Virus record (IMG/VR): IMGVR_UViG_3300002052_000001
Coordinates: 124,001 to 188,000 of that record
DNA: 64,000 nucleotides
Origin: a virus
Strand: one strand, 5' to 3'
Shown: in pieces, positions 10,808 to 10,943 of the stretch
Position numbering within the stretch: position 1 is the stretch's first letter
How the letters are laid out: each line of letters starts with the position of its first letter
Program-made: the position numbers and the translations under genes
Notes under the pieces: generated by a model
Told to the model about the DNA's origin: nothing
The model's input: only the letters and a program-made list of their open reading frames with translations
Databases searched by the model: none

Positions 10808-10943
10808 ATCCGGGGAACTGTCGCGTCATTTTCGGATATGGAATCCCGAGATTGCAGGTTCGAGTCCTGCCGCCCCCACCAAGCGGGGGCGTGGCCTAAC
10901 TGGTAAAGGCGCGAGACAAATGACGAGCAACTTACCCCCGGTA
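10808..10943 (+). ncRNA. Y-RNA-like element C2 with circularly permuted tRNA domain
   Basis: The end helix is CCGGGG/CCCCGG, then CGTCATTT (about 10824) pairs with AAATGACG (about 10918). Inside, the 3' half of a tRNA (T-arm GCAGG-TTCGAGT-CCTGC, acceptor CGCCCCC, then ACCA) precedes the 5' half (acceptor GGGGGCG, D-arm with GGCCTAACTGGTAAAGGC). The acceptor end is thus a closed loop and the Ro stem extends from the anticodon side. Blocks GGGGAACT and TTCGGAT match the other elements. It ends 19 bases before the Ro60 start codon. Confidence 0.7.

What the first reader, a model, noticed from the sequence alone, without database searches (positions are those of the whole stretch)
10808..10943. 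Circularly permuted tRNA domain in element C2
The T-arm, acceptor strand CGCCCCC and ACCA come first, and the pairing acceptor strand GGGGGCG and D-arm come after. A CGTCATTT/AAATGACG helix replaces the anticodon loop and leads into the Ro-type stem. This is tRNA mimicry in which the acceptor end is a closed loop.
Basis: seen in the sequence. Interest (0 to 1): 0.82.

Follow-up and report, generated by a model that had tools for sequence, protein, structure and literature searches.

The report
Phage Y RNA with permuted tRNA
A virus of bacteria carries, next to its own version of the Ro60 protein, a small RNA in which a scrambled-order tRNA sits on a Ro-binding-type stem; this layout is known from bacterial Y RNAs, but related phages carry a wider set, including RNAs with complete tRNAs whose anticodon arms are intact.

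Summary
At 10810-10941 (+) a two-helix stem (CCGGGG/CCCCGG, then CGTCATTT/AAATGACG) carries a T-arm, acceptor strand CGCCCCC, ACCA, the pairing strand GGGGGCG and a D-arm, in circularly permuted order. This is the layout of YrlA, the tRNA-mimicking bacterial Y RNA. Rfam YrlA aligns end to end, but at 31 bits against a threshold of 69. The next gene (10963-12549) has the Ro60 fold (VIA Z 20.4 over 404 residues), although Pfam TROVE misses it.

Two corrections. The inner helix is part of the Ro-type stem. A degenerate hairpin sits where the anticodon arm would be, so nothing simply 'replaces the anticodon loop'.

In related phages I found about 20 more permuted elements. Several keep a canonical anticodon arm (U33 in 11 of 13; anticodons GAU, CCA, GAA and others), with the Ro-type stem joined at the 26/27 junction or in the variable loop. 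Other Ro-type stems carry an uncut, normal-order tRNA, as in the neighbouring tRNA-Val (10554-10716).

C2 alone is a YrlA-like RNA of known layout. The set, complete tRNAs mounted on Ro-type stems in three topologies beside a divergent Ro60, looks like a new variant. Function is inferred, not shown.

The parts
10491..10519 (+). sigma70-like promoter TTGACA-17-AATAAT upstream of the Y RNA cluster
   Evidence: 11 of 12 consensus positions; 0.2 expected in shuffles. A similar site (TTGACA-17-TAAAAG, read by eye) precedes the Y RNA cluster in relative L002
10554..10716 (+). neighbouring Ro-type RNA (C1): normal-order tRNA-Val(UAC) (10597-10669) inside a 26-nt-arm stem with the GAGAACT motif
   Evidence: inverted repeat I1; tRNA 58.6 bits; longest flanking stem of the tRNAs surveyed
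10728..10799 (+). second small Ro-type hairpin RNA (B), no tRNA domain
   Evidence: fold; GGGAACTG motif; by analogy with L002
10810..10941 (+). C2: YrlA-like Y RNA with circularly permuted tRNA domain
10810..10815 (+). outer Ro-type helix, 5' strand (pairs with 10936-10941)
10816..10823 (+). internal loop AACTGTCG; AACT/GACT recurs in relatives
10824..10831 (+). inner Ro-type helix CGTCATTT, 5' strand (pairs with 10918-10925)
10834..10846 (+). degenerate hairpin at the anticodon-arm position
   Evidence: position shared with L013:361, L014:3178, L016:2605; low pair probability
10854..10870 (+). T-arm
10871..10881 (+). acceptor 3' strand CGCCCCC plus ACCA
   Evidence: NCCA kept in 8 of 21 elements
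10885..10891 (+). acceptor 5' strand GGGGGCG
10894..10910 (+). D-arm
10918..10925 (+). inner Ro-type helix AAATGACG, 3' strand
10936..10941 (+). outer Ro-type helix, 3' strand, followed by TATTTTT (10942-10948)
10963..12549 (+). Ro60-fold protein, 528 aa (helical N-terminal part plus vWA), divergent
   Evidence: fold; no Pfam TROVE hit
12549..13511 (+). ARPP-1 protein, gene directly after the Ro gene; a similar ORF follows the Ro gene in L001 and L002
   Evidence: Pfam PF20208, 8e-25; ORFs read by eye
8108..8289 (+). second permuted Ro-type RNA in the window, with anticodon arm TCAGT-TTGATAG-ACTGA (GAU)
7952..8104 (+). further Ro-type RNA with an anticodon-arm hairpin ATTGG-CTGAAAA-CCAAT (GAA), degenerate otherwise

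Best explanation
C2 is a phage-encoded YrlA-like Y RNA. Its two-helix stem with an AACU internal loop would be bound by the Ro60-fold protein encoded immediately downstream, and its circularly permuted tRNA module would recruit tRNA-recognising partners, by analogy with YrlA and PNPase. The RNA is probably transcribed together with C1, B and the Ro gene from the promoter at 10491. The permuted order probably arose when a tRNA gene was tandemly duplicated and the outer halves were lost: the short spacer with its encoded CCA became the loop that closes the acceptor stem. Shown here: anatomy, recurrence in relatives, Ro60 fold of the neighbour. Inferred: Ro binding, co-transcription, partner recruitment, origin.
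For: End-to-end YrlA model match 1-114/114, 31.0 bits, E 7e-5 on 481 nt, 0.0099 on 64 kb. The adjacent gene has the Ro60 fold: Foldseek E 9e-7 to Ro60; VIA Z 20.4 over 404 residues to Ro autoantigen 1yvr, Z 15.7 to Thermus phage phiLo Ro60, Z 12.6 to D. radiodurans Rsr. The same double-helix AACT/GACT stem encloses 12 of 21 permuted elements, null 0.07. Cellular YrlA hits (52-71 bits) have the same permuted order, and in L035 three lie among tRNA genes. The YrlA structure 6CU1 is a circular permutation of tRNA (PMC11472068). CCA retained at the right place in 8 of 21 loops, P 6e-10.
Against: The score is below Rfam's gathering threshold (31 vs 69), and tandem tRNAs reach 27.6 bits. The phage AACT internal loop is not obviously the YrlA stem motif (compare). 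Pfam TROVE does not recognise the protein. Plain thermodynamics prefer a fold without the T-arm. No expression or binding data.
Confidence: 0.77

Rival explanations
1. The Ro-mounted tRNA modules are baits: the Ro RNP presents tRNA look-alikes, many with true anticodon arms, to host nucleases that cut tRNAs during anti-phage defence, and so protects real tRNAs or captures cut ones. This adds a purpose to the best explanation; it does not contradict the anatomy.
For: Anticodon arms with U33 in 11/13 and purine 37 in 13/13. Where it can be checked in the window, the anticodons (GAU, GAA, UAC) duplicate ordinary tRNAs of the array at 9651, 9008 and 15285, so decoding is not the obvious need. The YrlA tRNA-like domain was proposed as a competitive inhibitor of an anticodon nuclease (PMC7790460). 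Phage tRNAs are reported to evade tRNA-targeting defences (PMC10264068, PMC11555353, abstracts). Some of these phages also encode RtcB or RNA ligase.
Against: C2's own anticodon-position hairpin is degenerate. No nuclease or cleavage data. Salmonella YrlA was not cut by the RecA-dependent nuclease of that host (PMC7790460), which fits an inhibitor but not a consumed bait.
Confidence: 0.27
2. C2 and its relatives are permuted precursor tRNA genes, like those of algae and Thermofilum, that are cut and ligated into working tRNAs.
For: Whole cloverleaf content including anticodon arms and encoded CCA in several relatives; RtcB in 4 and RNA ligase family matches in 4 of 15 records.
Against: C2's anticodon arm is degenerate; D-arms are degenerate in several relatives; no ligase found in the partial record G000; the junction at 26/27 or variable loop carries a Ro-type stem, whereas known permuted genes carry a bulge-helix-bulge motif (PMC3978253); the window's anticodons duplicate normal tRNAs.
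Confidence: 0.06
3. Two decayed tandem tRNA genes that happen to lie head to tail, with no joint structure.
For: Tandem tRNAs give the same order and can score 27.6 bits for YrlA; two such false positives occur in the window (9835, 6616) and others in L027/L029.
Against: 7/7 acceptor complementarity, 8-bp inner and 6-bp outer helix, recurrence in other phages; best upstream canonical partner only 5/7, while both false positives have 7/7.
Confidence: 0.04

Closest known systems
YrlA (Y RNA-like A), Rfam RF02553; Salmonella YrlA structure PDB 6CU1
   Same: Ro-binding-type stem made by the two ends; T-arm, acceptor, closed loop, acceptor, D-arm in circularly permuted order; gene beside a Ro60 protein; cellular YrlAs can also lie in tRNA arrays (L035).
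   Different: C2 scores 31 against a threshold of 69; different stem internal loop (AACU directly after the outer helix); ACCA kept in the acceptor loop; hairpin at the anticodon-arm position, canonical in several relatives; the Rfam consensus has no such arm and the cellular YrlAs recovered here have only short inserts there.
Ro60 / Rsr (TROVE) proteins, incl. Thermus phage phiLo Ro60 (9l5y) and D. radiodurans Rsr (2nvo)
   Same: Fold of the gene product beside C2 (helical N-terminal part plus vWA), Z 12.6-20.4.
   Different: About 12-16% identity; not detected by Pfam TROVE.
Circularly permuted tRNA genes of algae and Thermofilum pendens
   Same: 3' half before 5' half with a short spacer between the acceptor strands.
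   Different: Those mature to working tRNAs through bulge-helix-bulge splicing; junctions at 20/21, 37/38, 50/51, 59/60 (PMC3978253). Here the junction carries a Ro-type stem at 26/27 or in the variable loop.
Permuted tmRNA, Rfam RF04321
   Same: T-arm, acceptor and internal CCA match locally (21.9 bits).
   Different: Only positions 36-93 of 213 match, below the threshold of 47.

Membership tests
YrlA (RF02553) | covariance-model score at or above the gathering threshold (69 bits) | tested here: not met
   31.0 bits, though end to end 1-114/114
YrlA (RF02553) | permuted tRNA-like module: T-arm, acceptor 3', short loop, acceptor 5', D-arm | tested here: met
YrlA (RF02553) | stem formed by the 5' and 3' ends of the RNA | tested here: met
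   6-bp and 8-bp helices, pair probabilities 0.62-1.0; 0/60 shuffles
Y RNA in general | gene next to a Ro60 orthologue | tested here: met
   Ro60 fold of 10963-12549, which starts 21 nt after C2; orthology by fold only
Y RNA in general | bound by Ro60/Rsr | not testable with these tools
   needs a binding assay
YrlA | T and D loops modified by tRNA enzymes (TruB, DusA) | not testable with these tools
   reported for YrlA in PMC8394870; C2 has the loop sequences only
Ro60/TROVE protein | Pfam TROVE PF05731 match | tested here: not met
Ro60/TROVE protein | Ro60 fold over the full chain | tested here: met
   Z 20.4, 404 residues aligned, rmsd 4.4; model pLDDT 87
circularly permuted tRNA gene (algal/archaeal) | canonical anticodon arm in the encoded tRNA | tested here: not met
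   C2 hairpin is degenerate, no perfect 5-bp/7-nt arm; met in several relatives
circularly permuted tRNA gene (algal/archaeal) | bulge-helix-bulge splicing motif at the junction | not tested
   junction helix read as Ro-type stem; no formal BHB scan was run

The most novel reading that the evidence does not exclude
A lineage of large phages runs a Ro RNP whose Y RNAs carry complete tRNAs, with real anticodon arms, mounted on a Ro-type stem in three topologies (acceptor end, 26/27 junction, variable loop), as a changeable set of baits for tRNA-cleaving host immunity.
Probability: 0.25. Interest if true: 0.82.

Novelty: new variant of a known kind. Interest (0 to 1): 0.6.

Why it matters
Why Y RNAs mimic tRNA is an open question. 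These phage RNAs include forms that keep a whole tRNA with its anticodon arm, so they look like less eroded relatives of YrlA and make two ideas testable: that YrlA came from tandem tRNA genes, and that the tRNA part serves to meet tRNA-cutting or tRNA-modifying enzymes. They also reveal a Ro60-fold family that the standard TROVE profile misses.

Tried and rejected
Permuted tmRNA: partial, sub-threshold match only. Reading the inner helix as a lengthened anticodon stem: ARAGORN accepts some re-joined sequences, but it accepted many joins, so I gave this little weight; relatives with a true anticodon arm in the same place argue against it. YrlA model hits in L027/L029 and at window 9810: ordinary tandem tRNAs. 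Single-source-tRNA search: no tRNA in the window is a clear parent of C2; its T-arm is shared exactly only with the tRNA-Leu(taa) T-arm at 14789. Near-identical C2 sequences in viral contigs: none. PDB sequence profile search: nothing relevant. PHROGs: no hit. The first AlphaFold run with 3 sequences was poor (pLDDT 52) and was replaced. MAFFT alignment of 11 elements was too gappy around the stems to use for pair-by-pair covariation, so no formal covariation test was made. Chen 2014 and Sim 2020 could not be read, so the statement that anticodon-bearing Y RNAs are undescribed rests on the Rfam consensus, the cellular YrlAs recovered and the searches, not on a reading of those papers.

Full report
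What is there. The window is part of a 191,623-base virus record and contains a plus-strand tRNA array of 37 ARAGORN genes. The finding lies at the end of the first block of this array. Its RNA runs 10810-10941: CCGGGG [AACTGTCG] CGTCATTT, a short hairpin, T-arm GCAGGTTCGAGTCCTGC, CGCCCCC, ACCAAGC, GGGGGCG, TG, D-arm GCC...GGC, linker, AAATGACG [AGCAACTTAC] CCCCGG.

Is it more than chance? Tandem tRNA genes always give the order T-arm, acceptor, spacer, acceptor, D-arm, so order alone proves nothing; the Arg-Arg pair at 9810-9914 reaches 27.6 bits with the YrlA model. Three things separate C2. Its two acceptor strands pair 7/7 with each other, while the best canonical partner upstream is 5/7. 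A two-helix stem with an AACT internal loop encloses the domain, and no shuffle of the flanks reproduced it (0/60). The arrangement recurs: 21 of 124 T-arms in 20 loci show the 7/7 downstream partner against 1.9 expected (two of the 21, window 6616 and 9835, are ordinary tRNAs). With 8180 and L017:6967, whose acceptor loops are longer, I analysed 21 permuted elements, and 12 of them lie inside a Ro-type stem against 0.07 expected.

The neighbour is a Ro60-fold protein. ORF 10963-12549 has no Pfam TROVE hit. With 18 relatives AlphaFold2 gave pLDDT 87, pTM 0.84. Foldseek's ten matches below E 0.001 are all Ro60/TROVE structures, best E 9e-7; VIA-align gives Z 20.4 over 404 residues to Ro autoantigen, 15.7 to Thermus phage phiLo Ro60 and 12.6 to D. 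radiodurans Rsr. The next gene, 12549-13511, is ARPP-1, a protein proposed to act on sugar moieties in ADP-ribose-centred conflict systems (PMC9503650); a similar ORF follows the Ro gene in L001 and L002. A sigma70-like site (11/12) lies at 10491-10519, upstream of C1, B, C2 and the Ro gene.

Comparison with YrlA. The Rfam YrlA model aligns end to end at 31.0 bits, threshold 69. In genomes of the phylum of G015 I recovered cellular YrlAs of 52-71 bits, some lying between tRNA genes; they have the same permuted order. The published YrlA structure superposes on tRNA as a circular permutation (PMC11472068), and YrlA is described as modified by tRNA enzymes and as tethering PNPase to Rsr (PMC8394870). 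Y RNAs and Ro proteins have been noted in phages before (PMC7824862, PMC7765460, PMC12282133). So the layout of C2 is known. By score it is not a formal member of RF02553.

What differs. Between inner helix and T-arm C2 has a hairpin, GGAT-ATGGA-ATCC. In relatives the same place holds a canonical anticodon arm, for example L013:361 TTGGA-ATGATAA-TCCGA, L014:3178 CTTGT-CTCCAAA-ACAAG, L016:2605 CTTGT-CTGAAAA-ACAAG and window 8158-8174 TCAGT-TTGATAG-ACTGA. Eight of 21 hits had a perfect 5-bp/7-nt arm upstream of the T-arm against 0.9 expected (one of the eight is the tandem pair at 9835). In another group (L014:2973, L016:2396, L022:2021, L022:2539) the arm follows the D-arm, so the Ro-type stem joins in the variable loop. 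Over 13 such arms (11 plus two in the window, picked by eye) U33 is kept in 11 (P 1e-5) and a purine at 37 in all 13. A third form keeps the normal order: tRNA-Val at 10597-10669 sits in a stem with 26-nt arms, and stems with the GAGAACT/GAGGACT motif flank normal tRNAs in L001/L018, L007, L010, L012, L013, L025 and others. The tRNA is thus treated as a module that can be attached to the Ro-type stem at several points. C2 and the cellular YrlAs look like forms in which the anticodon arm has been worn down; this is an inference.

Origin and function (inference). Eight of 21 permuted elements keep NCCA directly after the acceptor strand (P 6e-10), as expected if a tandem tRNA duplication lost its outer halves. 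The RNA probably works as a tether: the Ro-type stem for the Ro protein, the tRNA module for a tRNA-recognising partner. A defence-related purpose (bait for tRNA-cleaving nucleases) is plausible because intact anticodon arms are kept and, in the window, duplicate ordinary tRNAs, but nothing here shows it. Maturation into working tRNA is unlikely for C2.

Limits. The plain energy model gives the T-arm low probability. The elements were found by requiring acceptor pairing, so that pairing cannot serve as independent covariation evidence; the D-arms, anticodon arms, CCA and Ro-type stems were not used in the selection. No expression, binding or probing data exist here. The key Y RNA papers could not be read. 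Several records are fragments, so absence of RtcB or ligase in them is not informative.

Noticed in passing
window 10554-10716: A complete normal-order tRNA-Val(UAC) (58.6 bits) inside a stem with 26-nt arms carrying the Ro-type motif; the T-loop reads TCCGATT rather than TTCGANN. A second, ordinary tRNA-Val(UAC) is at 15285.
   Followed up: partly
window 8108-8289: Second permuted element; its acceptor loop holds a small GC hairpin (AGGC-GCAA-GCCT) followed by a T run, terminator-like, between the two tRNA halves.
   Followed up: partly
window 7952-8104: Ro-type hairpin with a Phe-like anticodon arm (GAA) and degenerate T- and acceptor-like hairpins.
   Followed up: partly
L022 2021-2995: Five permuted tRNA domains close together in one phage, all keeping NCCA after the acceptor strand, with a stem motif that differs from AACT/GACT.
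   Followed up: partly
L012 191-702: A permuted Ro-type RNA (191-332) directly precedes a tmRNA gene (344-702, 106 bits).
   Followed up: no
L035 (cellular genome G165) 1249-2377: Three YrlA matches interleaved with tRNA genes in a cellular genome.
   Followed up: partly
window 12549-13511: ARPP-1 gene directly after the Ro60-fold gene, with a similar ORF in the same place in L001 and L002; a possible link between Ro RNPs and ARPP.
   Followed up: no
window 9088-9600: HNH_3 family gene (possible homing endonuclease) inside the tRNA array.
   Followed up: no
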